NCBI GenBank assembly: GCA_030431055.1
Contig: JAUIJA010000012.1
Coordinates: 1-61,818 of the forward strand
DNA from: Bacteroidia bacterium
GTDB lineage: Bacteria > Bacteroidota > Bacteroidia > Flavobacteriales > Flavobacteriaceae
DNA: 61,818 nucleotides
Direction: 5' to 3'
The notes beneath the pieces were generated by a model. The model was not told the DNA's origin and made no database searches. It was given only the letters and a program-made list of their open reading frames with translations. The translations under genes were made by a program, and so were the position numbers. This document shows positions 9,830 to 61,748 of the stretch, piece by piece (within the stretch, counting starts at the first letter, position 1; every line of letters starts with the position of its first letter).

Positions 9830-9830
9830 C

Positions 9831-10259: not shown

Positions 10260-10262
10260 TTG

Positions 10263-10294
10263 AATGAGTGTAAACTAATTTTGCACTCATTTTT
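10263..10294 (+). terminator. terminator after the SecB-like gene, with a -7 box in its loop
   Basis: The stem AATGAGTG/CACTCATT (10263-10270 with 10284-10291) is followed by a T run. The loop contains TAATTTTG (10276-10283), a match to TAnnTTTG, 45 bases before hsdR. The site may both end the toxin module transcript and start hsdR transcription. Confidence 0.6.
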
Positions 10295-10327
10295 AAATGA
10301 ATGCACTTATTTTTCAATTTTTTGTAA

Positions 10328-13201
10328 ATGACATCACAACCCGAACAAATATTAGAAAACAATCTTGTTACACAATTAGTAAAACTCGGTTATAAAAAAG
10401 TCGAAATTAAAGACGAAACCGCTTTGTTGGCTAATTTAAAATTGCAACTAGAAGTTCATAATAAAGTTACCCTAACCGATAGTAGTTTTCAGCAAATTTT
10501 AAACTACATCAACAAAGGGAATATCTACGAACGTGCGCAAATTTTACGCGATCGTGTGCCGTATGTAGATGAAAACGGGGAAACCAAAACCATTGAGTTA
10601 ATCAATCAAATACACTGGTGTCAAAATCAATTCCAAGTTACCCAACAAGTAACGATGGAAGGAAAATATAAAAACCGTTACGATGTTACCATTTTAATCA
10701 ACGGTTTGCCTTTAGCACAAATAGAATTAAAACGTAGAGGTTTAGAATTAAAAGAAGCGTTTAACCAAATCAATCGTTACGAACGCCATTCGTTTTCGGC
10801 TGGTTATGGTTTGTTTCAGTTTGTGCAATTATTTGTTATTAGCAACGGAGTAAATACCAAGTATTTTGCCAATGCGCCTATTAAATCGCGTTCGTTTAAA
10901 CAAACCTTTTACTGGACAGACGAACAAAACAACCTTATCACACAACTAACCGATTTCACGGATATATTTTTAGAACCTTGTCATTTATCGAAAATGATAA
11001 CCAAGTACATTGTTTTAAACGAATCGTACAAGGTTTTGATGGTATTACGTCCGTATCAATTTTATGCAACGGAAGCCATAGTAGAGCGTGTAAAAACGAC
11101 AACTAAATTCGGTTACATTTGGCATACAACAGGTTCGGGAAAAACCTTAACTTCTTTTAAAACGGCTCAAATTTTAACCAATTTACCCGAAGTGTATAAA
11201 GTGGTTTTTGTAGTCGATAGAAAAGATTTAGATTACCAAACTACCAAAGAATTCAACAGTTTTTCCAAAGGAAGTATCGACGGAACAAACAATACCAATA
11301 CGTTAGTCAATCAATTAGCTGATAATACAAAACTAATTGTTACGACCATTCAAAAGCTGAATACTGCGATTTCTAAAAATCGATATTTAGACCGAGTTAC
11401 CCATTTACAAGACAAACGCATCGTTTTCATTTTCGACGAATGTCATCGTAGTCAGTTTGGAAAAACTCATGATGATATAAAAAACTTCTTCCAAGAAAGT
11501 CAGATGTTCGGTTTTACGGGAACTCCAATTTTTGAAGAAAATGCAGGTTCAAATGAATTTGGAAAGCGTACAACTGCTATGTTGTTTGATAAATGTTTGC
11601 ACAAATACGTAATTACGAACGCTATTAAAGATGGAAATGTATTAAAATTTGCAATCGAATATATAAGCACATTTAAAAAGAAAGATGAAATTTTCGATAT
11701 AGAAGTAGAAGCTATTGACGAAGCCGAAGTAATGGATGCTCCGCAACGTTTAAACAATATTGTCAACTACATCATTGCAAACCATAAACGTAAAACACAC
11801 GAAAAGAAATTTACTGCAATGTTTTGTGTATCAAGTGTTGAGAGTTTAATTAAATACTATCAACTATTCCACGAAAAGAAAATTGCAACTGACCACAACT
11901 TAAAAATTGCAACGATTTTTTCGTATGGAGCAAATGATCCTGATGCAGATGCAAAGGGTATTTTAGTCGACGATGAATTTATTGAAGAAAACCCAACAGA
12001 ATTAAGTTTAGCAGCAGAACCGAAATCGGAATATACAAGCAAACACAATCGTGAATATTTAGATGAGTTTATTGGGCATTACAATAAAGAATTCAATACC
12101 AATTATTCAACAAAAGACAGTCAGAGTTTTTACAACTATTATAACGATATTGCCAAGCGCGTAAAAAACAAAGACATCGATATTTTATTAGTTGTAAATA
12201 TGTTTTTGACTGGTTTTGATAGTAAAACCTTAAACACACTTTACGTTGATAAAAACTTAAAATATCATGGTTTAATTCAAGCCTACTCGCGAACAAACCG
12301 AATTTTAGACGAAGTAAAATCACAAGGAAATATTGTTTGTTTTAGAAATTTAAAACAAGCAACCGATGATGCCATTCAATTGTTTTCCAATTTAGATGCT
12401 AAGGAAACTATTCTAATGCAACCGTATGAAGATTACGTTGAGTTATTTAATGTAGCTTTTGCCGAGTTTATTAAAATAGCACCTACTGTTGATAGTGTTA
12501 ATGATTTTGTAACCGAAGAAGAAGAGTTAGAATTTGTAAAAGCCTTCAGAGAATTAATGCGTTTAAGAAACAAACTCGTTACGTTTACAGAATTTAGTTA
12601 TGATGATTTACAATTAGAAGAACAAGTATTTGAAGATTATAAAAGTAAATACTTAGACTTATACGATAAAACTAAAACAGATACACAATCTGAGAAAGTT
12701 TCGATTTTAGATGACATCGATTTTGAATTGGAATTAATCCATCGTGATGAAGTGAATGTAACTTACATCATGAAGCTTTTAGCCAAATTGAAAGAGGAAA
12801 CTTCTGAAGCTGAAATGGAGAAACAAAAACAAAAAATTCTGGACATTTTAGCTGGAGAAACGCAATTGCGAAGTAAACGAGAATTGATTGAGAAATTCAT
12901 CAACAATCATTTACCTCAAATAGAGGACACCGATTTAATAGAAGATACTTTTGACGATTACTTAAAAGAAGAACGTACAATTGCAATAAAAGAATTGAGC
13001 ACAGAAGAAAACCTTAACCAACAAGTTTTAGAAAAAGTTATTGGCGATTATTTGTTTACCAATAAAACTCCTTTACGTGATGAAATAATTGCAACAATGA
13101 ACCAACGACCAAGTTTAAAAGAACGTGCCACAACCGCAGAACGTATTACGAATAAAATTGTGCACTTCGTAGAAACGTTTATTAGTGGTTTTGCTGGTTA
13201 A
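10328..13201 (+). CDS. hsdR: type I restriction endonuclease (R subunit)
   Basis: 957 residues, full length. The N-terminal nuclease domain has the PD-(D/E)xK-type core (RYDVTILINGLPLAQIELKR, ~115-137). The SF2 translocase has Walker A HTTGSGKT (~267-274), the DEAD-type box DECHRS (~370), FGFTGTPIF (motif III, ~395) and later LVVNMFLTGFDSKTLN / AYSRTNRIL (motifs V-VI, ~620-655). A helical C-terminal region docks to the methylase. The complex pumps DNA and cuts at a distance when the target is unmethylated. It is separated from hsdM-hsdS by the toxin-antitoxin-chaperone genes. Confidence 0.95.
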   Translation: MTSQPEQILENNLVTQLVKLGYKKVEIKDETALLANLKLQLEVHNKVTLTDSSFQQILNYINKGNIYERAQILRDRVPYVDENGETKTIELINQIHWCQNQFQVTQQVTMEGKYKNRYDVTILINGLPLAQIELKRRGLELKEAFNQINRYERHSFSAGYGLFQFVQLFVISNGVNTKYFANAPIKSRSFKQTFYWTDEQNNLITQLTDFTDIFLEPCHLSKMITKYIVLNESYKVLMVLRPYQFYATEAIVERVKTTTKFGYIWHTTGSGKTLTSFKTAQILTNLPEVYKVVFVVDRKDLDYQTTKEFNSFSKGSIDGTNNTNTLVNQLADNTKLIVTTIQKLNTAISKNRYLDRVTHLQDKRIVFIFDECHRSQFGKTHDDIKNFFQESQMFGFTGTPIFEENAGSNEFGKRTTAMLFDKCLHKYVITNAIKDGNVLKFAIEYISTFKKKDEIFDIEVEAIDEAEVMDAPQRLNNIVNYIIANHKRKTHEKKFTAMFCVSSVESLIKYYQLFHEKKIATDHNLKIATIFSYGANDPDADAKGILVDDEFIEENPTELSLAAEPKSEYTSKHNREYLDEFIGHYNKEFNTNYSTKDSQSFYNYYNDIAKRVKNKDIDILLVVNMFLTGFDSKTLNTLYVDKNLKYHGLIQAYSRTNRILDEVKSQGNIVCFRNLKQATDDAIQLFSNLDAKETILMQPYEDYVELFNVAFAEFIKIAPTVDSVNDFVTEEEELEFVKAFRELMRLRNKLVTFTEFSYDDLQLEEQVFEDYKSKYLDLYDKTKTDTQSEKVSILDDIDFELELIHRDEVNVTYIMKLLAKLKEETSEAEMEKQKQKILDILAGETQLRSKRELIEKFINNHLPQIEDTDLIEDTFDDYLKEERTIAIKELSTEENLNQQVLEKVIGDYLFTNKTPLRDEIIATMNQRPSLKERATTAERITNKIVHFVETFISGFAG

Positions 13202-20644: not shown

Positions 20645-21136
20645 ATGAAAATTATGGGATTTGAATTAGATAATGATGTAATAATAGTATGTAAAAACTC
20701 ATTGCAACTATCAGAAAGTAAGGAGCTTATGAGTTTTTTAGAAACAAGCTTATCTAGAAGTATATCAATATACGATAATGTTCCTAATGACAATGCTTGT
20801 GAATGTTTACTTTATGTAGGTGATGATGATTCTAATTATCATCATGTTTTAGAACATGGAGAAACGGCAATAATTTTTAATAAGAACTTTATTAAAGCAG
20901 AGCATCCTTTTGAAGTCGTTGGATTTGACTATATCAAAGAAGAACACGAGAATAATAGGCTTAAAGAAAGCGATTACTTTAAAGGTTTATTTGAAGAGTT
21001 AAAAAAGCTAAATGTAGAATGTGTTTATATTTCAGATTCTTGTACAAGTATAAATACAGAAAAAAATAATTCATGGGAAGAATTGCATTCTAGTATTATC
21101 AGATTAGATAAGTACGTTGAAATATCATTACTATAA
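20645..21136 (+). CDS. hypothetical protein, first gene of the SOS operon
   Basis: 163 residues from the ATG at 20645 (a TTG nine bases earlier lies inside the promoter box and was rejected). Mixed alpha/beta, soluble, acidic. Notable segments are ICKNSLQLS-like text at the start, CECLLYVGDDDSNYHHVLEH in the middle and CVYISDSCTSINTEKNN late. No family was recognised. Its stop overlaps the umuD start by one base (TAATG), so it belongs to the mutagenesis operon, perhaps as a regulator or polymerase-associated factor. Confidence 0.65.
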   Translation: MKIMGFELDNDVIIVCKNSLQLSESKELMSFLETSLSRSISIYDNVPNDNACECLLYVGDDDSNYHHVLEHGETAIIFNKNFIKAEHPFEVVGFDYIKEEHENNRLKESDYFKGLFEELKKLNVECVYISDSCTSINTEKNNSWEELHSSIIRLDKYVEISLL

Positions 21137-21591
21137 TGAAAGTAAAAACATTATATACTACTAAAAACTTGGAGTTCTTTATTCCTGATTATTCAACTGA
21201 TTTAGAATTACCATTTGCTGATACTGGAATCAAGGCAGGATTTCCTTCTCCTGCTGATGATTTTTTAGAATTAAGCATTGACTTAAATAAGGAATATATA
21301 AAGAATAAGGAAACCACTTTTTATGCAAAAGTAAAAGGTGATTCCATGAAGAATGCTGGTATTTTTGATGGTGACTTACTTATTATAGATAAAAGCTTAG
21401 AGCCTCAAAACGATAAAATAGCTATTTGCCAAATTGATGGAGAGTTTACAGTTAAAAGAATAAAGATTGATAATAAAGAGAAAATCGTTTGGCTTATAGC
21501 AGAAAATGAAGATTATCCACCAATAAAAGTAACTCCAGAAAATGAATTTTTGATTTGGGGTATAGTAGTAGCTTCAATAAAAAGACATTAA
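21136..21591 (+). CDS. umuD: UmuD-like S24 peptidase
   Basis: 151 residues, the normal size. The Ala-Gly self-cleavage site is in GIKAGFPSPADDF (~33-35). The catalytic Ser is in VKGDSMKNAGIFDGDLLI (~70) and the catalytic Lys in EFTVKRIKI (~107). On RecA-filament contact it cuts off its N-terminus and then joins UmuC as the active translesion polymerase. The umuC gene starts two bases after its stop. The LexA-type DNA-binding domain is absent, which fits UmuD rather than LexA. Confidence 0.93.
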   Translation: MKVKTLYTTKNLEFFIPDYSTDLELPFADTGIKAGFPSPADDFLELSIDLNKEYIKNKETTFYAKVKGDSMKNAGIFDGDLLIIDKSLEPQNDKIAICQIDGEFTVKRIKIDNKEKIVWLIAENEDYPPIKVTPENEFLIWGIVVASIKRH

Positions 21592-21592
21592 A

Positions 21593-22852
21593 ATGTACGC
21601 TTTAGTTGATTGTAATAACTTTTACGCCTCTTGTCAAAGAGTGTTTGAACCTCATTTATTAGGTAAGCCTATTGTGGTATTATCTAATAATGATGGTTGT
21701 GTTATTGCAAGAAGTAATGAAGCAAAAGCATTGGGAATTCCTATGGGAGCTCCAGCATTTGAATATAAGAAGCTTTTTGAAAATAATAATGTTTATGTGT
21801 ATTCTTCAAATTATGCCTTATATGGAGATATGAGCAGTAGAGTTATGAATCTGCTTTCTAAGTTTACTCCTGACATTGAAATTTATAGTATAGATGAAGC
21901 TTTTTTAAAATTTGATGGATTTAAGTATGTTGATTTAAACGAGTATGGACTTCAAATAAAAAAAACTGTGACTAAAGGCACAGGTATTCCAATTAGTGTA
22001 GGATTTGCACCAACTAAAGCACTTTCAAAAGTAGCCAATAAAATTGCTAAAAAATTCCCTGAGAAGACAAATGGTGTTTATGTTATCGATAATGATGAGA
22101 AACGATTAAAAGCATTAAAATGGTTGCCAATAGAAGATGTATGGGGAATAGGAAGAAAGCATGCAAAAAGGCTTAAAAATAGAAACGTATTTAATGCTTA
22201 TCAATTTACCAAGTTAACTGATGAATGGGTAAGAAAAGAAATGGCAGTTGTTGGTTTACGCCTTAAACATGAATTAGAAGGTAAGCCAACTCTAGATTTA
22301 GAAACTCCTAAATCTAAAAAAATGATAGCAACTACAAGGTCATTTGAAACTATGTACACTAAATATGATGAGCTTGCAGAAAGAATATCAACTTTTACAG
22401 TTTCCTGTTCCGAAAAGTTAAGAAAACAAAATAGTCATTGTAACATGATTATGGTTTTCTTGCACACTAACTACTTTAGAAAAGATTTACCTCAATATTC
22501 AAGAAACATTGTTATCAAAACCGATTTTCCTACAAACTCAACTATTGAATTAACAAAGTGTGCAAAGTCAGGATTAAAAGCTATATTTGAAGAAGGCTAT
22601 CATTATAAAAAAGCTGGTGTTATAGTTATGGGGCTAACTCCAAACAACAAAACACAATTAGCATTATTTAATAGCGCAAATCCTAAACATCAACCCTTAA
22701 TGAGTGTTGTAGATAGATTAAATACTTGCTATGGGACTAATAAGGTTAAATTTGGTAATCAATCATTAGGAAGGCAATGGAAAATGAAACAGGAGAAACT
22801 TTCGCCTAGATTTTCAACCAACTTAAAGGATGTAATAGAAATAGTATTATGA
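21593..22852 (+). CDS. umuC: UmuC-like Y-family DNA polymerase (Pol V catalytic subunit)
   Basis: 419 residues. It opens with ALVDCNNFYASCQRVFEP (metal-binding Asp), followed by NNDGCVIARSNEAKALGIPM and the catalytic SIDEAFLKFDG (~100). A helix-hairpin-helix-like DVWGIGRKHAKRLK is at ~185 and the little-finger domain at ~245-350. The last ~50 residues are the DUF4113-like UmuC tail (SVVDRLNTCYGTNKVKFGNQ). It performs error-prone translesion synthesis. Mobile elements often carry it, giving the host mutability under DNA damage. Next gene overlaps its end by four bases (ATGA). Confidence 0.95.
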   Translation: MYALVDCNNFYASCQRVFEPHLLGKPIVVLSNNDGCVIARSNEAKALGIPMGAPAFEYKKLFENNNVYVYSSNYALYGDMSSRVMNLLSKFTPDIEIYSIDEAFLKFDGFKYVDLNEYGLQIKKTVTKGTGIPISVGFAPTKALSKVANKIAKKFPEKTNGVYVIDNDEKRLKALKWLPIEDVWGIGRKHAKRLKNRNVFNAYQFTKLTDEWVRKEMAVVGLRLKHELEGKPTLDLETPKSKKMIATTRSFETMYTKYDELAERISTFTVSCSEKLRKQNSHCNMIMVFLHTNYFRKDLPQYSRNIVIKTDFPTNSTIELTKCAKSGLKAIFEEGYHYKKAGVIVMGLTPNNKTQLALFNSANPKHQPLMSVVDRLNTCYGTNKVKFGNQSLGRQWKMKQEKLSPRFSTNLKDVIEIVL

Positions 22853-24200: not shown

Positions 24201-24247
24201 AACCCTGTAAAATCAATACTTTACAGGGTTTTTTGTGGAGTCGGAGA
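24201..24247. repeat. attR: right direct repeat of the integrated element
   Basis: Same 47 bp as attL. It includes a terminator hairpin (24203-24234; stem CCCTGTAA/TTACAGGG) and the last 12 bases of the tmRNA gene. Beyond 24247 the rest of ssrA follows without interruption, so this end regenerates the functional gene. Confidence 0.85.
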
Positions 24248-24630
24248 GAATCGAACTCTCGTCCAAACAAGCAATCGAAGAGCTTTCTACACGCTTAGTC
24301 TTCATTTAAATTTTCGACTAAAAGCTAGACTGAAAACCGTCACTTTTAGCTTAGCTTTACATTTTCAAAACGGATTTAAAGCTTTACCGTTTCTAGGTTT
24401 ACTTTTACGGTTTTCCTAAATCAAACGCCATAAACCAAGGCTGTTGAGGAAAATCTAGCTTTTCGTCCTTGACGAAACTAGGCAAATCTTACTATGATTC
24501 AGATTAAGCAGCTAAAGCGTAATTATTTTCGCCGTTTAAAAAGTTGTACCATTGATATTTACGAGCCAACAATACAATGCTCGACGTGCTTACCGTTCAA
24601 TTTCACTCGCTGTCAAAACCAGTCGACCCC
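24236..24630 (-). ncRNA. ssrA: transfer-messenger RNA (tmRNA)
   Basis: About 395 nt. The 5' GGGGTCG (complement at 24624-24630) pairs with CGACTCC at the 3' end (24237-24243), including one G-U. The T-arm with GTTCGATTC is at 24243-24260. The tag reading frame (24504-24533, complement) encodes GENNYALAA and a stop, the Bacteroidota form. CCA is not encoded. It rescues stalled ribosomes and tags their products for proteolysis. The integrated element uses its 3' end as the attachment site without damaging it. Confidence 0.95.
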
Positions 24631-51582: not shown

Positions 51583-53283
51583 ATGAAGCTTATACATGAA
51601 AATCCATATAGAATTGCAGGCATCTTATCCAATGCTACTGAAAGAGAACTCCAAAGACAGCAAAGTAAGATTAAGAAGTTTGCGAAGATTGGCAGAGAAG
51701 CAGATTCAGAGTTAGATTTTAATTTTTTAAATCCGGTAAGTCGTTCAGAGGAAAATGTAAATAAAGCGTTTTCAAACATAGAGCAAAACGGAGATAAAGT
51801 TTCAAATTCTCTGTTTTGGTTTATTAAATCTAACCCTTTTGATGAGACAGCTTTGAACTATTTGATTAATGGTGACAAAGAAAAAGCTCTAGAAATATGG
51901 GAGAAAGTAACAAATGGTAAAGAAATAACCGCTAAGAACTTCTCATGCTTTAATAACATAGGAACATTAAAGCTTTTGGGTTCCAATCGGTCAGAAATTG
52001 CTGATGGAATTTCTTTAAAGTTTAAACTACTTGATTCAGATAGTTTTGCCGATTTTGTTCATTCCGTAGCAGATCAAACCTATTCTATTGACAACAAGAA
52101 ACAAGCAGAAAAACTGGTCGATACACTTTTATCGCAACTTAATGGGAAATATACTTTAGCCAGTACAGCTAAGCTTTTCAGTGGATGTAATTCAGAAACG
52201 AAAAAGTACATCTCTAAGAAGTTTACTGAAAAGCCTATTCACAACTTAGAAGCTCGAATAGAAAGTGCCAAAAGCAGAAGAAAACAAGACAAATTCAAAG
52301 CTTATGATTTTGGTTTAAAGTTATTTGTTGATAGTAAGGAAGACTTAGCTTCTATAAAATCCATGTTGGGAGCAAGTGATCTGAAATTCAAAATGATTGC
52401 AGATAACCTTGCTAAAGAAATTATGCAATGTGGTATTGATTATTTTCAGGCATGGAAGGATTCAAAAGATCCAAGTAATGAAGGATTGAAGCTTCTTAAA
52501 TATGCTGATTCGATAGCAATTGGCTCTCAAACAAAGGATAGAATTAGAGAGAATATCGAAGGCATGGAAGAATGGGCTCAATCTGCTCCTATAAAAGAAG
52601 ACCTTGAATACATTACAAATAAGCTAAGTAATTTCCAAAACCAATCAGACACTATAAGTAATGCTAAATCATTGGTTAGTGGATGTAAATACAAATTGCA
52701 GTCAATTAGGGGTGTTCTTGGCTCCGATGATGAACTCTATTTAGGGATTAGCAGTGCAGTTGTCGGAAATGCACTAGGTATGTTGATAGAAGTTGTAAAT
52801 GAAGCTCAAAGTGGATTAGAATATAACCGCTCGAAACTTCTACTCCTTCCTGGGGTTGTTTCTGATGCAGTTGAAGTAATAAACATGTTGGATGCGTTAG
52901 ATATGAACTATGAAACAAGAAGAAGGTTCAATGACAACAAATCCACTATTAAAGGCATGAATACTCAATTAGAAACTGTGCGAAGGCAAATGAGGTCTGC
53001 TTCAAGTTCTAGTTACAGTTCTTCTAGCAGTAGTTCATCTTCAAGTGGCGGTTGTTATATCGCAACAATGGCTTATGGAGACTACGACCATCCACAGGTT
53101 CTTGAATTACGGAAATTTAGAGATGAGTTTCTAGATAAGTTCTATCTAGGAAAACAGTTCATTAAGTTTTACTATAAGTACTCACCTAAACTTGTTGAAA
53201 AACTTGAAAATAAACAGAGCATAAATAATGCTATCCGTAGATCATTGGATCAATTTGTAAAGCTTATTAAGAAAAAGAAATAA
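51583..53283 (+). CDS. J-like N-terminus / CFI-box C-terminus protein, first gene of the Hsp70 cluster
   Basis: 566 residues. The N-terminus (NPYRIAGILSNATERELQRQ, ~7-26) has the look of a DnaJ-type helix-turn (YxxLGxxxxAtxxEI) but no HPD tripeptide, so it would not stimulate Hsp70 in the classic way. A long helical region follows (~60-465). A serine-rich linker (~470-488) leads to the CFI-box: CYIATMAYGDYDHPQVLELR (~491-510), then FRDEFLDKFYLGKQFIKFYY. CFI-box domains are C-terminal modules of unknown role in large stress proteins. The next gene starts at the last base of its stop. It probably delivers clients to the Hsp70. Confidence 0.75.
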   Translation: MKLIHENPYRIAGILSNATERELQRQQSKIKKFAKIGREADSELDFNFLNPVSRSEENVNKAFSNIEQNGDKVSNSLFWFIKSNPFDETALNYLINGDKEKALEIWEKVTNGKEITAKNFSCFNNIGTLKLLGSNRSEIADGISLKFKLLDSDSFADFVHSVADQTYSIDNKKQAEKLVDTLLSQLNGKYTLASTAKLFSGCNSETKKYISKKFTEKPIHNLEARIESAKSRRKQDKFKAYDFGLKLFVDSKEDLASIKSMLGASDLKFKMIADNLAKEIMQCGIDYFQAWKDSKDPSNEGLKLLKYADSIAIGSQTKDRIRENIEGMEEWAQSAPIKEDLEYITNKLSNFQNQSDTISNAKSLVSGCKYKLQSIRGVLGSDDELYLGISSAVVGNALGMLIEVVNEAQSGLEYNRSKLLLLPGVVSDAVEVINMLDALDMNYETRRRFNDNKSTIKGMNTQLETVRRQMRSASSSSYSSSSSSSSSSGGCYIATMAYGDYDHPQVLELRKFRDEFLDKFYLGKQFIKFYYKYSPKLVEKLENKQSINNAIRRSLDQFVKLIKKKK

Positions 53284-54224
53284 TGAAAAAAGTAATACTA
53301 GGAACAATTATAGGTTTATCGTCATTTGTAGCCGTGGCTCAAAGTGACAGCTTGATAAACGTAGAGGTAACATCTCTTAAACAGCAATTAAAAGAACAAT
53401 CAATTGAAATCGAAAAGTTAAGTGATAAGTACCAAGCTCAAAGGAATTCATTGATTGAAAAAGGTAATGCTATTTCTAAACTCAATCAGGAAAACCAGTC
53501 CTTAAAAGGAAAACTTGATAGTGTTTCTAATATCGTAAGCACCAATGGAAATAATATTGTTGCTATTTCTAAGGACTTAGGTACGAAAATTCAGGAAACC
53601 GGAGATATTGCTGATAGCAAAATTTCCGCTTTAAATAGTGATGTAGATAAAAACAGATTGTACTGGATAATTGGTACGCTAGCTACTTTACTAATTGGCG
53701 GTGTTATTTTTTGGCTTCTTGGGAAAAGAATTACTTCGAGTAAAACCGATGTTGAATCGCAAATAAACAACACAAAGAAATCACTTGAAGAAGAAAGTAT
53801 CAAATTGGATAGTAAGCTTGTTGAAGTTTTAGAGTCCCAATTGAAAATACAACAAGCAGAATCAAGTTCAACTCCATCAAGCTCTACCCCTGAAAAGGAA
53901 GATCATTCGTTGGCAATTAAAGTTGCTGATGAAATAGTACGAATGGAGAGATACATCTCTAGAATTGATCCAGGAACCAAAGGATTGAAGCCATTAGTGA
54001 AAGGAGTAGAAAAACTACACGATAATTTAAAATCTAAAGGATACTCAATAGAGGTTTTACTAAACAAGGACTATGAGGAAAGAATGAATATTGACGTAAT
54101 CACCTTCAAAGAGGATGAGGCATTACAAGAAGGAAGAAAGATAATTACAAGAATAATAAAACCGCAAGTCAACTTTAATGGAGTTCTTATTCAACGAGCT
54201 CAGGTTGATGTATCACAGAATTAA
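53283..54224 (+). CDS. membrane-anchored coiled-coil protein with GrpE-like C-terminus
   Basis: 313 residues. Signal-like N-terminus (MKKVILGTIIGLSSFVAVAQ), a periplasmic-side coiled coil (~25-100), a membrane helix (LYWIIGTLATLLIGGVIFWL, ~127-146), then a cytoplasmic coiled coil (~155-190), a Ser/Thr/Pro linker and a C-terminal domain (~205-313). That domain ends in ITRIIKPQVNFNGVLIQRAQ, similar to the beta wing of GrpE nucleotide exchange factors (KPGYxxxxRVIRPAxVxV-type). If right, it ties the Hsp70 to the membrane and recycles its nucleotide. GrpE assignment is an inference from position and this tail. Confidence 0.65.
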   Translation: MKKVILGTIIGLSSFVAVAQSDSLINVEVTSLKQQLKEQSIEIEKLSDKYQAQRNSLIEKGNAISKLNQENQSLKGKLDSVSNIVSTNGNNIVAISKDLGTKIQETGDIADSKISALNSDVDKNRLYWIIGTLATLLIGGVIFWLLGKRITSSKTDVESQINNTKKSLEEESIKLDSKLVEVLESQLKIQQAESSSTPSSSTPEKEDHSLAIKVADEIVRMERYISRIDPGTKGLKPLVKGVEKLHDNLKSKGYSIEVLLNKDYEERMNIDVITFKEDEALQEGRKIITRIIKPQVNFNGVLIQRAQVDVSQN

Positions 54225-54234
54225 AAAAATTAAT

Positions 54235-56766
54235 ATGGCACGGATAAAAATTGATTACGGAATAGATTTAGGAACAACAAACTCTGCTATCTCAAGAATG
54301 GAACAAGGAGAAAGCAAGATTATTAAAGCATTAGATACGCAAAAAGACACAACACCTTCTTGTGTTGCTTTTAATCGCAAAGGAAATATTTTAATTGGTG
54401 ATTCTGCATATGCTTCATATCGTTCCGAAAGTGTTAAGGTAATGTCAAAAGGTAAGAGCCTTAATTCCTTTGTAGAATTCAAAAGAACTATGGGTACCGA
54501 TAAAACTTATCACTGTCCGAATATATCAAAAGATTTATCTTCTGAAGAATTATCCGCTGAAGTTCTTAAAAGGCTGAAAGAATATGTTAATGACGAAAAT
54601 ATCAATGCAGCTGTTATAACCGTTCCTGCCGCTTTTAAGAATAACCAAATTGACGCAACAAGAAAAGCTGCGAAGCTTGCAGGATTTGACCATGTAGAAG
54701 TTTTACAAGAGCCAGTTGCAGCATCTATGGCTTATGGTTTAGATAGTTCTAACAAAGATGGTTTTTGGCTTGTTTTTGATTACGGAGGGGGAACTTTTGA
54801 TGCAGCTTTATTGAAAGTTGAAGAAGGTATCATGAAGGTAATTGATACCGAAGGGGATAATTACCTCGGAGGTAAAAACTTAGATTATGCAATTGTTGAT
54901 CAATTGATTATCCCACATATTAAGGAGAACTTCGAAATTGATGAAATATTAAGTGATGACAACAAGAAGACTGAATACAGAGGAGCTTTAAAATTTTATG
55001 CCGAAGAAATAAAGAATAACCTATCATTCAACCCTTCACATAATGTTTATGAAGCACCTGGAGATTGCGGAGAAGATGATAATGGTGAGGAAATAGAGAT
55101 AGATTTAACCGTCACTCAGGATCAGTTAAAAGAAGTGTTAGCTCCAGTTTACCAAAAGGCGATTGATTGTGCAGTAGCACTTTTAAGTAGAAATAATTTA
55201 CAAGGCTCTTCTTTAGATTCTCTAATTCTAGTAGGTGGACCAACATTATCTCCTATAGTTAGAGAAATGTTGGAAAAGCAAATCTGCAAGCCAGACACAA
55301 GTGTTGATCCTATGACAGTGGTTTCAACTGGAGCTGCATTATACGCTTCTACCGTAGATTTATCAGATGAAATAATTGATAACCAGAGAGACCGTACGAA
55401 AATACAACTTGAGCTGCATTTTGATTCTTCAACTATTGACAATGAAACAATGGGAATTGTCAAAATATTAGAAGATAAGACTGATGGAACTATTCCAGAG
55501 AAAGTTTTTGCTGAAATAAAAAGAGGTGACAATGCTTGGGCAAGTGGAAAAGTAGAGATAAATGCAATAGGAGTGCCAGTTGATATACAATTGCAAGAAG
55601 ACAAGACAAACATGTTTGATGTCACACTATATGATGATAAAGGAAATCTTCTTGAATGCGAACCAAATTCATTCAATGTAATACAAGGATCAGTTGTTGG
55701 TTCTGCAACATTACCTTACAATGTAGGTATTGAAATTCAAGACATTAACTCTGGCAAGATTGTGTTTAGAACTATTGAAGGTTTGGAAAAAAACAAATCA
55801 TTACCTGCAACTGGAACTAAGAATGGTCTAAAAACCGCAAGACAAATTAGACCAGGTATGGAAAGTGACTATTTAGAGATTTCAATTTTCCAAGGAGAGC
55901 ATGGAGCCGAAGATACAAGAGCAATCCATAACCATCATGTTAATACAATTTATATTACTGGTAATGACTTCCCTTCACTACTTCCTGAAAATAGTGATGT
56001 AGATATTACCCTTAACATTGATAAATCTCAAAAAGTAACCGGTAAAGCATTCTTCCCTTATTTGGAGTTCGAATATGAGTTTGAATGTGAAACAAAAATA
56101 GATTCAGTTCAATCTGCATGGTTAGACAATGAATTTAAGAAAGGTTTATCAAGTGTAAACGAGCTTAAAAGAAAAGGAATCAGTTCAGAGGAACTGGATA
56201 AAGCAGAAAAGGAAATTCAGGAAGGTAAAAAACTTTTTGAAAGTTCTAAAGATGATACAGATACTAAACAGCAAGCTCTTTCCAATTTAAGAAAATCACT
56301 AAAAGTGGTTGATAAATTGCTTGGAGATAGAGAGTGGCCTGAGTTAGAAAAGGAATTAAAGGAGGCTTTCCACAATCTAGAAGAGATCAATCGAGAAAAA
56401 GGAAATGAGCAAACAACTCAGATAGTTAATAAAATAAAACCTGATGTTGAGCAAGCTATTAGAGATAAGGATAGTAAAAACACTCCTCAGCTTATTGAAA
56501 TAATTAATCATTTGGCATTTGAATTAGAGAAGCTTGAGCACGCTATGGGATTGATATACAGCTTCGATAGAGATTTTGATTCAATTCAATGGAAAGATAG
56601 AAACGCAGCAAGAAGTCTTCTTAACAGAGGAAAGCAGATTATTGTTGAGAATCCGAGCTTCGATAGTTTAAGACCAATTTGTGCAGATTTATTACAAAAC
56701 TCAGGCTTAACTGATGATTTGGATTCAAATCAAAACGAGAGTGCTAAAGGAATTTTAAGGGGATAA
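54235..56766 (+). CDS. Hsp70-family chaperone with long C-terminal extension
   Basis: 843 residues from the ATG at 54235 (upstream frame lies over the previous gene). The nucleotide-binding domain has YGIDLGTTNSAIS (~8-20), VITVPAAFKNNQIDATRKAA (~128-147), VFDYGGGTFDAALL (~180-193) and LVGGPTLSPIVREML (~332-346). A substrate-binding-like beta domain follows (~390-560). The C-terminal ~250 residues are helical and exceed DnaK (~640 in total). This is not the housekeeping DnaK: the beta domain is divergent and there is no EEVD-like or Gly-rich tail. It is the core of the cluster. Confidence 0.9.
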   Translation: MARIKIDYGIDLGTTNSAISRMEQGESKIIKALDTQKDTTPSCVAFNRKGNILIGDSAYASYRSESVKVMSKGKSLNSFVEFKRTMGTDKTYHCPNISKDLSSEELSAEVLKRLKEYVNDENINAAVITVPAAFKNNQIDATRKAAKLAGFDHVEVLQEPVAASMAYGLDSSNKDGFWLVFDYGGGTFDAALLKVEEGIMKVIDTEGDNYLGGKNLDYAIVDQLIIPHIKENFEIDEILSDDNKKTEYRGALKFYAEEIKNNLSFNPSHNVYEAPGDCGEDDNGEEIEIDLTVTQDQLKEVLAPVYQKAIDCAVALLSRNNLQGSSLDSLILVGGPTLSPIVREMLEKQICKPDTSVDPMTVVSTGAALYASTVDLSDEIIDNQRDRTKIQLELHFDSSTIDNETMGIVKILEDKTDGTIPEKVFAEIKRGDNAWASGKVEINAIGVPVDIQLQEDKTNMFDVTLYDDKGNLLECEPNSFNVIQGSVVGSATLPYNVGIEIQDINSGKIVFRTIEGLEKNKSLPATGTKNGLKTARQIRPGMESDYLEISIFQGEHGAEDTRAIHNHHVNTIYITGNDFPSLLPENSDVDITLNIDKSQKVTGKAFFPYLEFEYEFECETKIDSVQSAWLDNEFKKGLSSVNELKRKGISSEELDKAEKEIQEGKKLFESSKDDTDTKQQALSNLRKSLKVVDKLLGDREWPELEKELKEAFHNLEEINREKGNEQTTQIVNKIKPDVEQAIRDKDSKNTPQLIEIINHLAFELEKLEHAMGLIYSFDRDFDSIQWKDRNAARSLLNRGKQIIVENPSFDSLRPICADLLQNSGLTDDLDSNQNESAKGILRG

Positions 56767-58548
56767 ATGGGTTCTAATTCACACATATTAAAAAAAGGTG
56801 AACTTATTGATGATAAGTACCAAATAGCTTTCTTTCTAAAAAAAGGGAGCTATGCTGAAACTTATCGTGTCAAAGGAAATGACGGAAAAACAAAACTATT
56901 AAAGCTATTCATATACTCTCAGCTAGATAGAACACAGTTCACGAATTCCGGTACACCTTTAGAAATTGATGTTTTAAAATCAATAAAACATCCTAATGTG
57001 GTGAAGTATCATGATTCGGGAGAACTCATCATTGAAAATCAAAAATATGGCTATGTGATTCTCGACTTTATTAGTGGGGAAACTCTCGCTGATAAAATGA
57101 AACGAGAGGATACTCTGAATCAATACGAGGCGAAGGATATTATTCTAGGTGTTTTAAATGGATTAAATCATCTACATAGTATAGATAGACCTTTGATTCA
57201 TAATGATATTACGAATCTTAACGTAATGCTCGATCTTTCAGGTAAAGTTCCTGTTCCAAAACTAATTGATTTCGGGTATGCTAGGTGGATAGATCAAGCA
57301 ACAAATGATTTTTTAAAGGAAGGGCTAAATCCTTTTTATCAATCAAATGAAGCTTTCAATAAAGTTTTCTCAGTTCAAAGCGACATTTTTTCTGTTGGAG
57401 CTCTTTACTATCACTTACTATTTGGAATGCCACCTTGGTTCGTGGAACTTTCCAAGTTTAAATCTGACAGAATAAAAATAGAAGATGCCATCATTGAAGA
57501 AAGACAAAAGAAATTAAGTTTCCCTGATTCTGATGTAATAGTTGATGAAACTATTCTAAAGGTTATCTCTAAGGCTCTTCAACCAAAAGCAGAAAATAGA
57601 TTCAAAAACGTAAAAGAATTTATCAAAGCGGTAAATGGCGAACTAGAAATTCAGCTTTCTGAAACTACCGAATCCGAGTTAATTGTTAAACCTAAAAAAG
57701 TTAAGCAAGGCAAAGGATTTTCGTCAATTGCAGGAATGCAGGACTTAAAAGATTTAATCAAACTTGATGTTATTGATGCTCTTAATGAGAAGGAAAAATA
57801 TGCTGAGTACGGTTTAACTATACCCAATGGCATGTTACTCTATGGTCCTCCGGGTTGTGGTAAAACATTTTTTGCAGAAAAGATGGCAGAGGAAATTGGG
57901 TTTAATTTTTACCAAATAAAGCCATCTGACATTCAAAGTAAGTGGGTTAACGCCTCCCAAGAGAATATCAAAAAGCTTTTTGATGAAGCAAGGGAAAATG
58001 CTCCTAGCGTTATTTTTATTGATGAGCTAGATGCGATGGTGCCAAATAGGGACAGTTCAGGGATCAATCACATGAACACCAGTGCTGTCAATGAATTTCT
58101 TGCTCAAATGAATAATGTTGGAGAGGATGGTGTATTTATAATTGGTGCGACTAACCGACCTAACTCAATTGATCCAGCAATATTAAGAGCAGGAAGATTA
58201 GATAAGCACATCTATCTCCCCCCTCCTGATCATGAAGCTAGAAAACTAATGTTTGAGCTTTATCTAAAGAAACGACCAACTGAGGTTGGACTTAATTATT
58301 CTGAGTTAGCAACGATAACAGAAAATTATGTTTCGAGTGATATTAAATTTTTATGCGATGAAGCATCTCGAAGAGCTCTTAAAACAAAATCGAGAATAAC
58401 TTGGGAGATTCTTTCATCCACAATCAAAGATAATAGACCGTCTATTTCTCTTAAAGAACTTCACAGCTATGAGGCTATAAAGGCAAAAATGGAAGGTCAA
58501 AATTCAACCAGTAGCGAACGACCTAGAATAGGTTTTAAAAGAAATTAA
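56767..58548 (+). CDS. Ser/Thr protein kinase fused to a Cdc48/FtsH-type AAA+ ATPase
   Basis: 593 residues. Kinase half (~10-290): glycine loop LKKGSYAET (~25), Lys46 in KLLKLFI, catalytic loop IHNDITNLNVML (His145, Asp147, Asn152), and DFG at 168-170 in KLIDFGYARW. Residue 149 is Thr where Lys is usual. AAA+ half (~320-530): Walker A GPPGCGKT (360-367), Walker B VIFIDE (415-420), second region of homology GATNRPNSIDP and arginine-finger AGRLDKHIYLP. I know no standard bacterial protein with this order. It suggests an unfoldase switched by phosphorylation. Confidence 0.92.
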   Translation: MGSNSHILKKGELIDDKYQIAFFLKKGSYAETYRVKGNDGKTKLLKLFIYSQLDRTQFTNSGTPLEIDVLKSIKHPNVVKYHDSGELIIENQKYGYVILDFISGETLADKMKREDTLNQYEAKDIILGVLNGLNHLHSIDRPLIHNDITNLNVMLDLSGKVPVPKLIDFGYARWIDQATNDFLKEGLNPFYQSNEAFNKVFSVQSDIFSVGALYYHLLFGMPPWFVELSKFKSDRIKIEDAIIEERQKKLSFPDSDVIVDETILKVISKALQPKAENRFKNVKEFIKAVNGELEIQLSETTESELIVKPKKVKQGKGFSSIAGMQDLKDLIKLDVIDALNEKEKYAEYGLTIPNGMLLYGPPGCGKTFFAEKMAEEIGFNFYQIKPSDIQSKWVNASQENIKKLFDEARENAPSVIFIDELDAMVPNRDSSGINHMNTSAVNEFLAQMNNVGEDGVFIIGATNRPNSIDPAILRAGRLDKHIYLPPPDHEARKLMFELYLKKRPTEVGLNYSELATITENYVSSDIKFLCDEASRRALKTKSRITWEILSSTIKDNRPSISLKELHSYEAIKAKMEGQNSTSSERPRIGFKRN

Positions 58549-58549
58549 T

Positions 58550-59095
58550 ATGGAACAAATGAGCTTTAATAAATTATTGCTAAAAACTGCCTTCTCTTGT
58601 ATGGCTTGTGATGGTGATATTGATAAACGAGAAGTTGTGTTAATTAAAAGTATGCACAATGATCGGAAAGTGTTTGGGGATATTGATATTGAGAAGGAGT
58701 TAGATGAATTATTGCTGTCAATCAATCATGATGGTCAAAAGTTTTTAAAAGGATTTTTTAATGAGCTTACAGCAAATGAGCTTACCGAAGAGGAAGAACT
58801 AAAACTAATAGAAGCTGCGATTGACACAATAAAAGCAGATGAAAAAGTTGAGTATAGTGAAATCAAATTTTTCAAGGTTATTAGAAGTAAACTCAAAATT
58901 GAAAACGATCCAATTCTTGAAATTCATCCAGACTTCGAAGAATATTTAGAACAAGATATTATCAGCGATTCTTATTTGGCGAGATTACAAGACGACTTTT
59001 TTGATACACATACATCTAAGCAATTTGAATTGATTAGCTCTATTGATGACAATGTGTTAAAGAATCTCAAAGAAGAAGATGGCGAGCAAGAATAA
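58550..59095 (+). CDS. TerB-like protein
   Basis: 181 residues, all-helical and acidic. The N-terminal part has the TerB pattern FSCMACDGDIDKREVVLIKS (D-G-x-I-D-xx-E motif, ~15-34) and a second DTIKADEKVEYSEIKFFKVI (~98). TerB proteins occur in tellurite-resistance and phage-defence loci and interact with membrane or kinase partners. It starts one base after the kinase-AAA stop and overlaps the next gene by 17 bases, so the genes are tightly coupled. Confidence 0.8.
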   Translation: MEQMSFNKLLLKTAFSCMACDGDIDKREVVLIKSMHNDRKVFGDIDIEKELDELLLSINHDGQKFLKGFFNELTANELTEEEELKLIEAAIDTIKADEKVEYSEIKFFKVIRSKLKIENDPILEIHPDFEEYLEQDIISDSYLARLQDDFFDTHTSKQFELISSIDDNVLKNLKEEDGEQE

Positions 59096-59396
59096 ATATG
59101 TAAAAATTGCTCTTGCGGTTTTATTCCTTCTGTGTTTAGCCGACTTCCCTTATGGTTTTTATCAATTGGTAAGATTCATTGGCTCAATTGGACTAGGTTA
59201 TTTAGCTTACTCTGCCTATCAACAAGAAAACAAAGTTGATTTAATAGTTTTTGGTGCGTTAGCATTATTATTTCAGCCATTTGCAAAAATCACTTTAGGA
59301 AGAGAGTTATGGAATATTATAGATGTTGGAGCTGCTATTTATCTGTTTATTTCTGTAATTAATTCAAAAGGCAAATCTAAAAAAGAAACATTTTAA
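59079..59396 (+). CDS. small membrane protein of the DUF6804 type
   Basis: 105 residues with three to four membrane segments (IALAVLFLLCLADFPYGFYQ; RFIGSIGLGYLAYSAY; LIVFGALALLFQPFAKITL; NIIDVGAAIYLFISVI). The phrase FQPFAKITLGRELWNIIDV resembles DUF6804 proteins. It overlaps the TerB-like gene by 17 bases and the next gene by one base. It may anchor the complex in the membrane. Confidence 0.75.
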   Translation: MASKNKYVKIALAVLFLLCLADFPYGFYQLVRFIGSIGLGYLAYSAYQQENKVDLIVFGALALLFQPFAKITLGRELWNIIDVGAAIYLFISVINSKGKSKKETF

Positions 59397-60277
59397 TGGA
59401 AATAAGAGATGATAATGGGCAGATGAAAATAATATATCATCCTGAAGGTGATATTAATAAATTTGAGCCTATTGATAATTCTGAATTGAAAAAATTTGCA
59501 ATAGATATTTTGTCAACAGAATATAAAACCAGAGGGGTAGAAATACTTTCAATAAATTATAGTAATAATTTCTCAGAACCTAATATAATTAAGAGATCTA
59601 AAGGGTATCCAGATGTTGCTTATTTTGTTCTTGCCACTTTAACCAATGAAGCCTTAGATATTGATTTTTCTAAATTCACAAATATTTCAACCCGATTAGT
59701 TGAGAAAGGTATTATACCTAGGGTTGCTGTTGCATCTTTTTGGTGTTATCGTGGTTTTGGAGAAAAAGCTTACAAGGGTGGCGATTATTCAGTAAAATTT
59801 GATTTTATAACTCTAATTGATGACAACAATGAACTCAATAGTTCTGAGAATCTAAATATTGAAGAACTAACTCAAAAATTTCTTTTGGCATGGAATGAAT
59901 TAGATGTCTCAATAATATCTCCTTATTTAAGCAAAAACTTTCTGTATTCATCTTCATGGGTATTTGATGAACTTCCTTCGAGATATGAGTATTTATTGTA
60001 TTTAGAAGGCAAGTTTAATACTCTAAGGAATTCAAATATTAATCCTGATGTGGTTATTAATTATCTCAATGGAAAGCCTGTTTTATTTTTTAATCAAAAT
60101 GGAGAAATAGGAGTATTAGAATTATGGCAACAGAATGGTTTATTGGTGCGGGGAAAAATGTATCCATATAAAGAAGAAATCAGCAAAGAATTTGAAATAG
60201 ATAGTGCAAAAAAGAAAAATGGTTCTCTAATAAATAAATTAATCCAATTCCTAAAAGGCGATGAGCAAAAGAATTGA
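59396..60277 (+). CDS. hypothetical protein with NTF2-like C-terminal domain
   Basis: 293 residues, soluble. The N-terminal domain (~1-150) is alpha/beta and unrecognised (DINKFEPIDNSELKKFAIDI, VAVASFWCYRGFGEKAYKGG). The C-terminal domain (~155-270) has the NTF2/SnoaL layout: EELTQKFLLAWNELDVSIIS, PYLSKNFLYSS, RYEYLLYLEGKFNTLRN. Such domains bind small ligands or act as scaffolds. It overlaps the next gene by 17 bases. No further match. Confidence 0.65.
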   Translation: MEIRDDNGQMKIIYHPEGDINKFEPIDNSELKKFAIDILSTEYKTRGVEILSINYSNNFSEPNIIKRSKGYPDVAYFVLATLTNEALDIDFSKFTNISTRLVEKGIIPRVAVASFWCYRGFGEKAYKGGDYSVKFDFITLIDDNNELNSSENLNIEELTQKFLLAWNELDVSIISPYLSKNFLYSSSWVFDELPSRYEYLLYLEGKFNTLRNSNINPDVVINYLNGKPVLFFNQNGEIGVLELWQQNGLLVRGKMYPYKEEISKEFEIDSAKKKNGSLINKLIQFLKGDEQKN

Positions 60278-60797
60278 AGCCAAAATAACTTGCCCAAGGT
60301 GTAAACATCAGTTTGATTACACATTGTTTCGTTCAATTTGGGGAGAATACCCTGAGAACAGAGAACTGGTAATGTCAGATAAAATCAATGTTGCCAAATG
60401 TCCATCTTGCGGTGATTCAACAAAGTTGGTTTTCCCATTTATTTACACAAATGCAAAACAACATTTTGCTGTATGGTGGGAACCTGAATATGATCCTCAA
60501 ATAGACAAGGATAGTGCAGGTTATGCTAATATGTTGGGTGAAGGAAATTATTTAGCTACCGCTCCAAGAGTTCGTGATTGGGATGAGTTTAAAGAAACAA
60601 TTCTAAAATTTGAACGAGGCGAATTAAAAGGAAAGCCAGGAACAATGAGTTCCGGAATGGAAGGTCAAATGAAAGGCTTTTTGAAAGATCTTGAAAAGAA
60701 GAATAAAAAACAAAATAGTGGCTGCCTAGGAATGGTAGCTGCAATTATTACCGTTGCAGGAGGTTTGGGATATACATTATTTCAAATCATACTTTAA
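60261..60797 (+). CDS. CpXC-domain zinc protein with C-terminal membrane anchor
   Basis: 178 residues. Zinc-binding CPRCKHQF (~10) and KCPSCGDSTK (~46) form the CpXC fold, which also includes FPFIYTNAKQHFAVWWEPEY. A Lys/Gly-rich linker (~130-150) leads to a tail-anchor helix (CLGMVAAIITVAGGLGYTLF). It is a cytosolic domain held at the membrane. It is encoded in the TerB-containing cluster, where CpXC and TerB genes have been noted together in other stress or defence loci. Function unknown. Confidence 0.82.
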   Translation: MSKRIEAKITCPRCKHQFDYTLFRSIWGEYPENRELVMSDKINVAKCPSCGDSTKLVFPFIYTNAKQHFAVWWEPEYDPQIDKDSAGYANMLGEGNYLATAPRVRDWDEFKETILKFERGELKGKPGTMSSGMEGQMKGFLKDLEKKNKKQNSGCLGMVAAIITVAGGLGYTLFQIIL

Positions 60798-60824
60798 AAA
60801 TTAAGTTTTACTTAAAATAAACGA

Positions 60825-61109
60825 ATGAGTTCGTACCGAGATAGGGCAAGTGAATCAGGCGATTTCAAAGAGAAAAGCTTGATAAGTCATAAGTTCATCA
60901 AAGCAGTAGAATACCTGATAGAAAATGAAGTTATTTCAAGTAAAAAGGAGATTTCGGATAAATATGGATATAGCAAATCCTTGATTACGCTAATATCACA
61001 AGGTTATCAGGACGTTCCTATTGGATTGCTTCATGACTTTATTCATGATTATCATCTTAATCCTGATTTCTTCTTTGGACTAGAAGAAAACATCTACTTA
61101 GATAAATAA
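60825..61109 (+). CDS. small helix-turn-helix protein
   Basis: 94 residues. Helical throughout, with ISSKKEISDKYGYSKSLITL (~37-56) as a likely HTH, then ISQGYQDVPIGLLHDFIHDY. A Cro/CI-like or XRE-like repressor of the cluster is plausible, but a repressor at the 3' end of the operon is uncommon. Its last 16 bases overlap the end of the phage-like gene on the opposite strand. Confidence 0.7.
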   Translation: MSSYRDRASESGDFKEKSLISHKFIKAVEYLIENEVISSKKEISDKYGYSKSLITLISQGYQDVPIGLLHDFIHDYHLNPDFFFGLEENIYLDK

Positions 61110-61280: not shown

Positions 61281-61748
61281 TTAATAAACTTCCGGTACAC
61301 CTCCCGATAAAAGGGCTTTTACAGTTCCTAAAATTGCATTGGGTTTTGATTCTAATGCTTTGGCAAAAGTGCCCGGCCAGGACGATGATGAAGCATAACC
61401 TCTTCCATGAACATCACCGGTATAAATGTTGTCGCCAATATTTACAGGAAAAACAGTCATTTTAATATCCGCAATACCTGATATTTGAATGGTTACCAAT
61501 TGACCTATTCCACCACCAGTTTTCACTACGCCTATAACATCTTCGCTGTAATACAAATTGGTAGTCGTTACTGACAAAGGATTGTTTTTCTCAATGATTA
61601 CCACATCACCGGGTTCTAAAATCTGAGCTGAACGGTTGGTTAGTTGAATTTCACTACCTCCAGTTCCACCTCCCGGATCCGTTCCACCGGTTTGCTCAAC
61701 GATGGTTTGACTTGCTTTTACAAAACGTTGTTTATTGATATACCTCAT
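61281..61748 (-). CDS. putative phage virion protein (DUF2190/head-decoration-like)
   Basis: 155 residues. A Gly/Thr-rich linker (TGGTDPGGGTGGSE, ~21-34) precedes a beta-rich domain: LTNRSAQILEPGDVVIIEKN, SEDVIGVVKTGGGIGQLVTI, FPVNIGDNIYTGDVHGRGYA and AKALESKPNAILGTVKALLS. The GDxIYTGD/ATGxAxxA/GxVxALL arrangement is that of capsid-stabilising or tail-fibre-associated phage proteins. GC content rises here compared with the chromosome. It overlaps the upstream gene by ATGA. Confidence 0.6.
   Translation of the reverse strand: MRYINKQRFVKASQTIVEQTGGTDPGGGTGGSEIQLTNRSAQILEPGDVVIIEKNNPLSVTTTNLYYSEDVIGVVKTGGGIGQLVTIQISGIADIKMTVFPVNIGDNIYTGDVHGRGYASSSSWPGTFAKALESKPNAILGTVKALLSGGVPEVY

What the first reader, a model, noticed from the sequence alone, without database searches (positions are those of the whole stretch)
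51583..61109. Nine-gene Hsp70 / kinase-AAA+ / TerB / CpXC cluster, possibly an undescribed system
Nine genes in one direction, most overlapping or within two bases, combine parts not normally found together: a J-like/CFI-box protein, a membrane-anchored protein with GrpE-like tail, a divergent 843-residue Hsp70, a protein kinase fused to an AAA+ unfoldase, a TerB-like protein, a DUF6804-like membrane protein, an NTF2-like protein, a tail-anchored CpXC zinc protein and an HTH protein. These cover client capture, nucleotide exchange, unfolding, signalling and membrane attachment. It reads as a self-contained chaperone machine at the membrane. Placed in a prophage-like element next to virion genes, an anti-phage or stress role is likely but unproven.
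Basis: partly seen in the sequence, partly recalled or inferred. Interest (0 to 1): 0.93.

Follow-up and report, generated by a model that had tools for sequence, protein, structure and literature searches.

The report
Membrane-anchored Hsp70 immune machine
This is a set of five to six neighbouring genes, found together in whole or in part in 24 DNA stretches from Bacteroidota bacteria and likely passed between species, that encodes an Hsp70 chaperone, a predicted membrane-spanning partner and an AAA+ motor that would pull proteins apart; in seven of those stretches it sits beside antivirus-type genes, and it likely works as an undescribed antivirus system.

Summary
g1-g5 (often with g6, DUF6804) is a conserved operon, found whole or in part in 24 Bacteroidota loci. 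In 395 sampled genomes of the phylum, full-length kinase-AAA (g4) and strong g2 matches occur in exactly the same 6. g7-g9 were found in none of the other 23 loci. g2 is predicted to span the membrane and carry a GrpE-like inner domain (12 best Foldseek matches are GrpE; sequence profiles do not show it). g3 is an Hsp70 with its ATP-site motifs intact. g4 joins a kinase-like domain, which lost the catalytic Asp in 17 of 22 cluster members (not in the window), to an intact AAA+ motor ending in an IGF motif like the one ClpX uses on ClpP. Seven clusters lie beside BREX, Type I R-M, Gabija, AbiV or TIR/patatin genes; in the last, TIR and patatin genes stand where g4-g5 would be. The window's own cluster has no such neighbour, and a bulk control shows only weak enrichment. 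A defence role is likely but untested; the prophage setting is unsupported. Closest kind: the HSP70/GrpE theme of GAP1-N2 conflict systems.

The parts
51583..53283 (+). g1: all-helical protein with a J-like N-terminus (no HPD) and a CFI-box-CTERM
   Evidence: NCBIfam CFI-box E 1.4e-21; model; homologues in first place of the operon
53053..53259 (+). CFI-box-CTERM of g1 (residues 491-559), the place where 7 of 13 homologues have a hydrophobic TM-like tail
53283..54224 (+). g2: predicted membrane-spanning GrpE-like protein
53667..53723 (+). TM-like stretch of g2 (residues 129-147); such a stretch is in 23 of 23 cluster copies
   Evidence: hydropathy
53895..54218 (+). GrpE-like C-terminal domain of g2 (residues 205-312)
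   Evidence: Foldseek and VIA-align
54235..56766 (+). g3: Hsp70, 843 aa (longest ORF starts at 54178)
   Evidence: Pfam E 2.3e-64; ATP-site motifs invariant in 13 rows; insert of about 110 residues before the SBD-like part
56767..58548 (+). g4: kinase-like domain fused to AAA+
56842..57606 (+). kinase-like domain of g4 (residues 26-280); HND and DFG kept here
57832..58221 (+). AAA+ domain of g4 (residues 356-485), Walker A/B, sensor and Arg-finger residues kept
58528..58536 (+). IGF motif in the C-terminal tail of g4 (residues 588-590)
58550..59095 (+). g5: TerB-like protein
   Evidence: Pfam E 0.05; alignment; homologue in 18 of 24 loci
59079..59396 (+). g6: DUF6804 membrane protein, optional part (10 of 24 loci)
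   Evidence: Pfam E 2.1e-34
59396..60277 (+). g7: unknown, very rare; in the same gene run but not a conserved part
   Evidence: 3 homologues; no match in the other loci
60261..60797 (+). g8: CpXC protein with a TM-like tail; not a conserved part
60825..61109 (+). g9: small protein, HTH reading not confirmed; not a conserved part

Best explanation
Genes g1-g5 (often with g6) form a conserved operon, likely spread by horizontal transfer, for an Hsp70 machine predicted to sit at the membrane, and it likely defends the cell against phages by recognising infection-altered proteins and passing them to its AAA+ motor, which would unfold them. Shown by the calls: conserved order and co-occurrence; ATP-site motifs of Hsp70 and AAA+ kept; patchy distribution at odds with host kinship; antivirus-type genes directly beside seven of 24 loci; one natural variant (L231) in which g1-g2-g3 stand between TIR and patatin genes without g4 or g5. 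Predicted from models or hydropathy: g2 spans the membrane with a coiled coil on one side and a GrpE-like nucleotide-exchange domain on the other (cytoplasmic side assumed); g1 is a J-like, often tail-anchored adaptor. Inferred and untested: a signal at the envelope acts through g2 on the Hsp70 cycle; clients gathered by g1 and g3 go to the g4 ring; the mostly degenerate kinase domain is a docking or switch module; the IGF tail of g4 may recruit host ClpP so that the client is destroyed; g1-g3 is a sensing chassis and g4-g5 an exchangeable output module.
For: Operon in 24 loci and co-occurrence in the same 6 of 395 genomes (g1 long matches in these 6 and G413). Near-congruent g3 and g4 trees with Flavobacterium members scattered among other families. 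GrpE-like fold of g2 and PF01025 annotated on the g2 homologue P0204. Hsp70 and AAA+ motifs kept. IGF tail in 20 of 22 cluster g4 and 110 of 120 listed homologues against 11 of 1637 other proteins; host ClpP. Neighbours: BrxL/PglZ, HsdM, GajA/GajB, HsdR, HsdM/HsdS, AbiV HEPN, TIR, patatin, TIR+TPR-S. Same chromosomal site holds a C5 DNA methyltransferase or an integrase in relatives. Precedent for the DnaJ/DnaK cycle in phage sensing: bNACHT25 (PMC12169576, abstract and passages); TerB in the Shango system (PMC10250203, passages).
Against: No experiment. The window's own cluster has no defence gene beside it. A random control of 87 proteins also gave 100 PADLOC families, against 201 in 119 neighbour proteins, so bulk enrichment is weak. 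g2 is not GrpE by sequence profile, and unrelated helical bundles reach equal or higher VIA Z (1naf 9.4). g1 lacks HPD. Kinase-AAA proteins of the same architecture occur alone in gut Bacteroidales (L035-L043, L048), so g4 does not always need the chaperone part. No protease in the operon; ClpP docking rests on a three-residue motif. PADLOC does not list the two TIR proteins of L231 or the AbiV protein of L220.
Confidence: 0.5

Rival explanations
1. It is an accessory envelope-stress or proteostasis system, not an immune system: a membrane-bound Hsp70/AAA+ pair that extracts or disaggregates damaged membrane proteins, like a second DnaK-ClpB pair.
For: All main parts are chaperone-like; membrane features; SH3-domain and signal-sequence proteins next to some clusters (for L222).
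Against: Rare and patchy (6 of 395), moves between families, direct antivirus-type neighbours in seven loci and the TIR/patatin variant.
Confidence: 0.25
2. It is an abortive-infection switch: Hsp70 occupancy is guarded, and activation makes g4-g5 (or TIR/patatin in L231) harm or kill the infected cell.
For: TIR and patatin genes in L231; bNACHT25 precedent of chaperone-dependent sensing.
Against: No toxic enzyme domain is recognised among the window's nine proteins; the AAA+ motor more directly suggests unfolding of clients.
Confidence: 0.15
3. It is cargo of a prophage, serving the phage (for example capsid folding or exclusion of rival phages).
For: A weak cement-like protein at 61281-61748 near the contig end.
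Against: That match is below the Pfam cut-off; it and g9 match nothing in the phage records; no phage record covers 80% of g3 or g4; two viral-contig scans confirmed no relative of g4 or g2 (pattern-based); the left flank is chromosomal.
Confidence: 0.07

Closest known systems
GAP1-N2 GTPase-centric conflict systems, HSP70/GrpE theme (Kaur et al. 2020, PMC7159879; passages and section 29 read)
   Same: HSP70 with GrpE, DnaJ or TPR partner, membrane and SH3 features; some also have a second HSP70 without the peptide-binding domain, as L030 seems to (506 aa)
   Different: No GTPase, GAP1 or FNIII among the window's nine proteins; adds a kinase-AAA+ fusion and TerB; found here in Bacteroidota, whereas that theme is described mainly in actinobacteria and firmicutes
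DnaK-DnaJ-GrpE with ClpB (bi-chaperone disaggregase; recalled)
   Same: Hsp70, GrpE-like factor, J-like adaptor, AAA+ motor
   Different: GrpE-like part on a membrane protein, no HPD, one AAA+ domain of CDC48/FtsH type
Shango (PMC10250203, passages)
   Same: TerB-like protein with an ATPase, in defence hotspots
   Different: Shango has a helicase and no Hsp70 part
Type III-A CoCoNuTs (PMC11090510, passages)
   Same: Hsp70-like domains and kinases (TerY-P) in defence operons
   Different: No McrB GTPase, nuclease or VWA among the nine proteins
ClpX and its IGF loop (PMC8745299, passages)
   Same: (L/I/V)-G-F motif on an AAA+ motor
   Different: Here at the C-terminal end rather than in a loop; ClpP binding untested

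Membership tests
GAP1-N2 HSP70/GrpE conflict systems | TRAFAC GTPase with GAP1 and FNIII components | tested here: not met
   Pfam scan of the nine proteins, E<=1, shows none; neighbours of other loci only partly scanned
GAP1-N2 HSP70/GrpE conflict systems | HSP70 gene with a GrpE gene | tested here: inconclusive
   HSP70 met; GrpE by predicted fold only, not by sequence
DnaK-type Hsp70 system | Hsp70 ATP-site motifs | tested here: met
   Invariant in 13 of 13 rows; residue roles recalled
DnaK-type Hsp70 system | J domain with HPD | tested here: not met
   No HPD in the N-terminus of 13 of 13 g1 rows; hhalign probability 19%
DnaK-type Hsp70 system | GrpE nucleotide-exchange factor | tested here: inconclusive
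   12 best Foldseek matches are GrpE; no profile match
Active protein kinase | VAIK Lys, HRD Asp, DFG Asp | tested here: met
   All three in the window's g4; HRD Asp lost in 17 of 22 cluster members
Active protein kinase | Lys two residues after the HRD Asp | tested here: not met
   Thr in the window; 8 Thr, 3 Asn, 1 Glu, 1 Leu in 13 rows
AAA+ ATPase | Walker A, Walker B, sensor and Arg fingers | tested here: met
   13 of 13 cluster rows
ClpP-docking unfoldase | (L/I/V)-G-(F/L) motif | tested here: met
   IGF in the window's g4 tail
ClpP-docking unfoldase | Binds ClpP | not testable with these tools
   Host has ClpP; no binding data
Catalogued defence systems (PADLOC 2.0.0) | Whole-system match | tested here: not met
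   Only generic matches of g4 (IetA, mad6, PD-T4-6) and weak ones of g3 and g8
Anti-phage defence (function) | Reduces phage replication | not testable with these tools
   Needs plaque assays
Prophage cargo | Lies within a prophage | tested here: inconclusive
   Contig ends at 61818; one weak cement-like match

The most novel reading that the evidence does not exclude
A new class of chaperone-gated bacterial immunity: a receptor that spans the membrane and works as a nucleotide-exchange factor, so that an envelope signal of infection directly turns on an immune Hsp70, which loads clients into a plug-in output module; in the window that module is a kinase-like AAA+ ring that recruits host ClpP by its C-terminal IGF tail, and in another strain it is TIR and patatin enzymes.
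Probability: 0.25. Interest if true: 0.93.

Novelty: new variant of a known kind. Interest (0 to 1): 0.79.

Why it matters
If true, bacteria use Hsp70 itself as part of an immune sensor or executor, with a predicted transmembrane GrpE-like protein as the input, a design I know from nowhere else (recall). It would tie protein quality control to antivirus defence, make the role of TerB and CFI-box proteins testable, and give large uncharacterised families a place: at least 1745 g2-like proteins at E<=1e-15 and 7893 g4-like ones at E<=1e-60 (these may include the standalone type).

Tried and rejected
Prophage cargo: no supporting phage match. Nine-gene unit: dropped, g7-g9 not found in the other loci. 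g2 as GrpE by sequence: hhalign and hmmsearch against 20 GrpE of relatives gave nothing; the predicted fold and one annotated homologue support it. g1 as a J protein by fold: no Foldseek match at E<=0.001; VIA rows cover residues 83-474, so the N-terminus stays untested by fold. Defence enrichment by bulk PADLOC counts: weak once a control was run (201 families in 119 neighbour proteins, 100 in 87 control proteins; each table shows only 25 families; the control held Cas1, AbiE and Type II R-M matches). I gave 119 of 129 neighbour proteins and 87 of 88 control proteins. Scanned singly with PADLOC: 30 proteins, of which 10 had matches; not every neighbour was scanned singly, and ThsB1, PglX, PDC-S02 and PDC-S09 matches were not traced to loci. 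Swapping of g3 against g4 between clusters: identities hinted at it, but the trees agree in most small clades, so not claimed. Loci left out of the 24: L027 (contig ends in g1) and L221 (second contig of G272 with a g2-like ORF). Tail counts use slightly different patterns; standalone proteins end in IGF in 6 of 9 and IGY in 2 of 9. Novelty: 10 paper searches showed no paper on this operon; bioRxiv and most subscription papers are not held. 'CFI-box' alone: 0 papers. PMC13092281 main text: 0 occurrences of Hsp70, DnaK, TerB, chaperone, GrpE, DnaJ.
Full report
What is there. Nine + strand ORFs lie at 51583-61109. Pfam, NCBIfam and PADLOC scans identify a CFI-box-CTERM protein (g1), an Hsp70 (g3), a kinase-AAA+ fusion (g4), a weakly TerB-like protein (g5), DUF6804 (g6) and CpXC (g8). 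g2, g7 and g9 have no convincing family match. The left flank is chromosomal (menC-like, miaE, glycosyltransferase, NUDIX, DUF6642). The contig ends at 61818. The genus is probably Flavobacterium: F. omnivorum protein P0001 lies on a contig of 85017 bases, the length of the contig of G199, a same-genus genome.

The conserved unit. A tblastn of g3 against plasmids found Haliscomenobacter hydrossis pHALHY02, which carries g1-g5 in the same order at 36, 38, 49, 52 and 46% identity. Genome scans brought more loci. Over 24 loci, g1-g2-g3 stand in order on one strand in 23, g4 is present in 22, g5 in 18 and g6 in 10. The exceptions are contig ends (L028, L225, L229, L230), a reordered locus without g2 on its contig (L029), a decaying one (L228: g1 in three pieces, no g5) and the variant L231. 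The g2-g3 junction lies between -47 and +24 bases in 23 of 23. Seven loci (L030, L031, L032, L220, L227, L228, L229) have extra genes between g3 and g4, a slot for variable cargo. g7, g8 and g9 were not found in the other loci.

Co-occurrence and spread. In 395 genomes of the phylum, full-length g4 occurs in 6 (a seventh match covers AAA only). g2 reaches E<=1e-25 in the same 6; the best matches of the other 67 of 73 genomes are at E>=3e-9 and mostly cover the N-terminal coiled-coil part. Long g1 matches are in the same 6 plus G413, whose contig ends inside g1; the other 13 of 20 match only the C-terminal part. Among 60 relatives only the window's own genome has a long g1 match. g2 is in 11 of 378 genomes of the genus, 2 of 164 of the order of G401 and 1 of 4 of the order of G070, own or centre genomes included. 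In quick trees of 22 loci, g3 and g4 agree in most small clades, while Flavobacterium members fall into several clades beside other families (long branches for L028 and L029). So the operon is mostly inherited as a unit and likely passes horizontally. It is scarce on mobile elements held here: one plasmid record with 80% coverage of g3 and of g1, no phage record with 80% coverage of g3 or g4, nothing confirmed in two viral-contig scans.

The IGF tail. g4 has a GF motif preceded by I, V, F, L or M near its C-terminus in 20 of 22 cluster members and 110 of 120 listed homologues, against 11 of 1637 other proteins in my loci. Clp ATPases dock on ClpP through a loop with (L/I/V)-G-(F/L) (PMC8745299, passages); the host has a ClpP. 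Docking on ClpP is a specific untested proposal; binding to a partner of the operon is an equal rival.

Defence setting. Nearest or next-nearest genes are BrxL and PglZ in L003, HsdM in L025 and GajA/GajB in L033, HsdR in L034, HsdM/HsdS in L227 and an AbiV HEPN protein in L220. L231 has a TIR protein 3 bases before g1, and patatin and TIR+TPR-S proteins after g3, with no g4 or g5 in the 20 kb held. Looser: SspC about 4.4 kb from the cluster of L224, a PDC-S02/REase-like match 3 kb from L222 and a candidate PDC-S60 match next to L028. Against: the window's own cluster has no such neighbour (its nearest R-M genes are about 38 kb away), a random control was also rich in PADLOC matches, and PADLOC lists neither the TIR proteins nor AbiV. 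The case rests on direct adjacency and on L231. At the window's chromosomal site (glycosyltransferase/NUDIX), relative G023 has a C5 DNA methyltransferase and G012 an integrase, which suggests a hotspot for exchangeable islands.

Mechanism. I commit to a sensing chassis (membrane g2, adaptor g1, Hsp70 g3) with an exchangeable output module (g4-g5 here, TIR/patatin in L231). In the window type the output would be unfolding of infection-exposed proteins, perhaps with ClpP. Precedent for the DnaJ/DnaK cycle in phage sensing: bNACHT25 (PMC12169576, abstract and passages). All functional steps are inferred.

Known kinds. Nearest is the HSP70/GrpE theme of GAP1-N2 systems (PMC7159879, section 29), which also knows a second HSP70 without peptide-binding domain (L030 has a 506-residue one) and SH3 domains (L222). 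Its GTPase, GAP1 and FNIII parts are missing among the nine proteins, so this is not a member; it may work like one. Hence 'new variant of a known kind'.

Noticed in passing
L231:7200-16579: Variant operon: TIR (with FGE-sulfatase domain), g1-, g2- and g3-like genes, a 106-aa ORF, patatin, a 195-aa ORF, TIR with TPR-S; no kinase-AAA or TerB in the 20 kb held.
   Followed up: partly
window:1419-24630: Likely integrated element beside tmRNA (24235-24630): by eye a tyrosine recombinase at 1419, Type I R-M genes at 6086-13201 and UmuDC-like genes at 21136-22852.
   Followed up: no
L035-L040, L042, L043, L048: Standalone kinase-AAA proteins in gut Bacteroidales with HRD Asp kept; IGF near the end in 6 of 9 and IGY in 2 of 9.
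   Followed up: partly
L030:8457-9977 and L220:11718-14030: Second Hsp70 inside the operon: 506 aa matching the NBD only, and 770 aa.
   Followed up: no
L242 and L243 (relatives G012, G023): Same chromosomal site beside glycosyltransferase and NUDIX holds an integrase with small genes, or a C5 DNA methyltransferase with a large unknown pair: a likely hotspot.
   Followed up: partly
window:54235-56766 and other g3: Several Hsp70 copies end in LRG, LG or IG (7 of 13 printed tails end in G), perhaps a docking tail like EEVD (recall).
   Followed up: no
L222:6255-6797; L030:12272-13480: SH3-type proteins with signal-like N-termini beside some clusters (Pfam SH3_3 for L222; L030 by eye).
   Followed up: no
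window:46554-47003: WapI-like immunity protein (Pfam PF24716, E 6.1e-28).
   Followed up: no
window:38649-39806: Protein matching phrog_382, minor tail protein with lysin activity (E 1.2e-49), in otherwise chromosomal surroundings.
   Followed up: no
window:59396-60277: g7 has only 3 homologues at E<=0.001 among 5.8 billion proteins, one 91% identical on a 620-kb contig.
   Followed up: partly
P0134: Siansivirga zeaxanthinifaciens carries a g2 89% identical to the window's, against 44% or less in the first 10 other loci aligned: probably a recent transfer.
   Followed up: no
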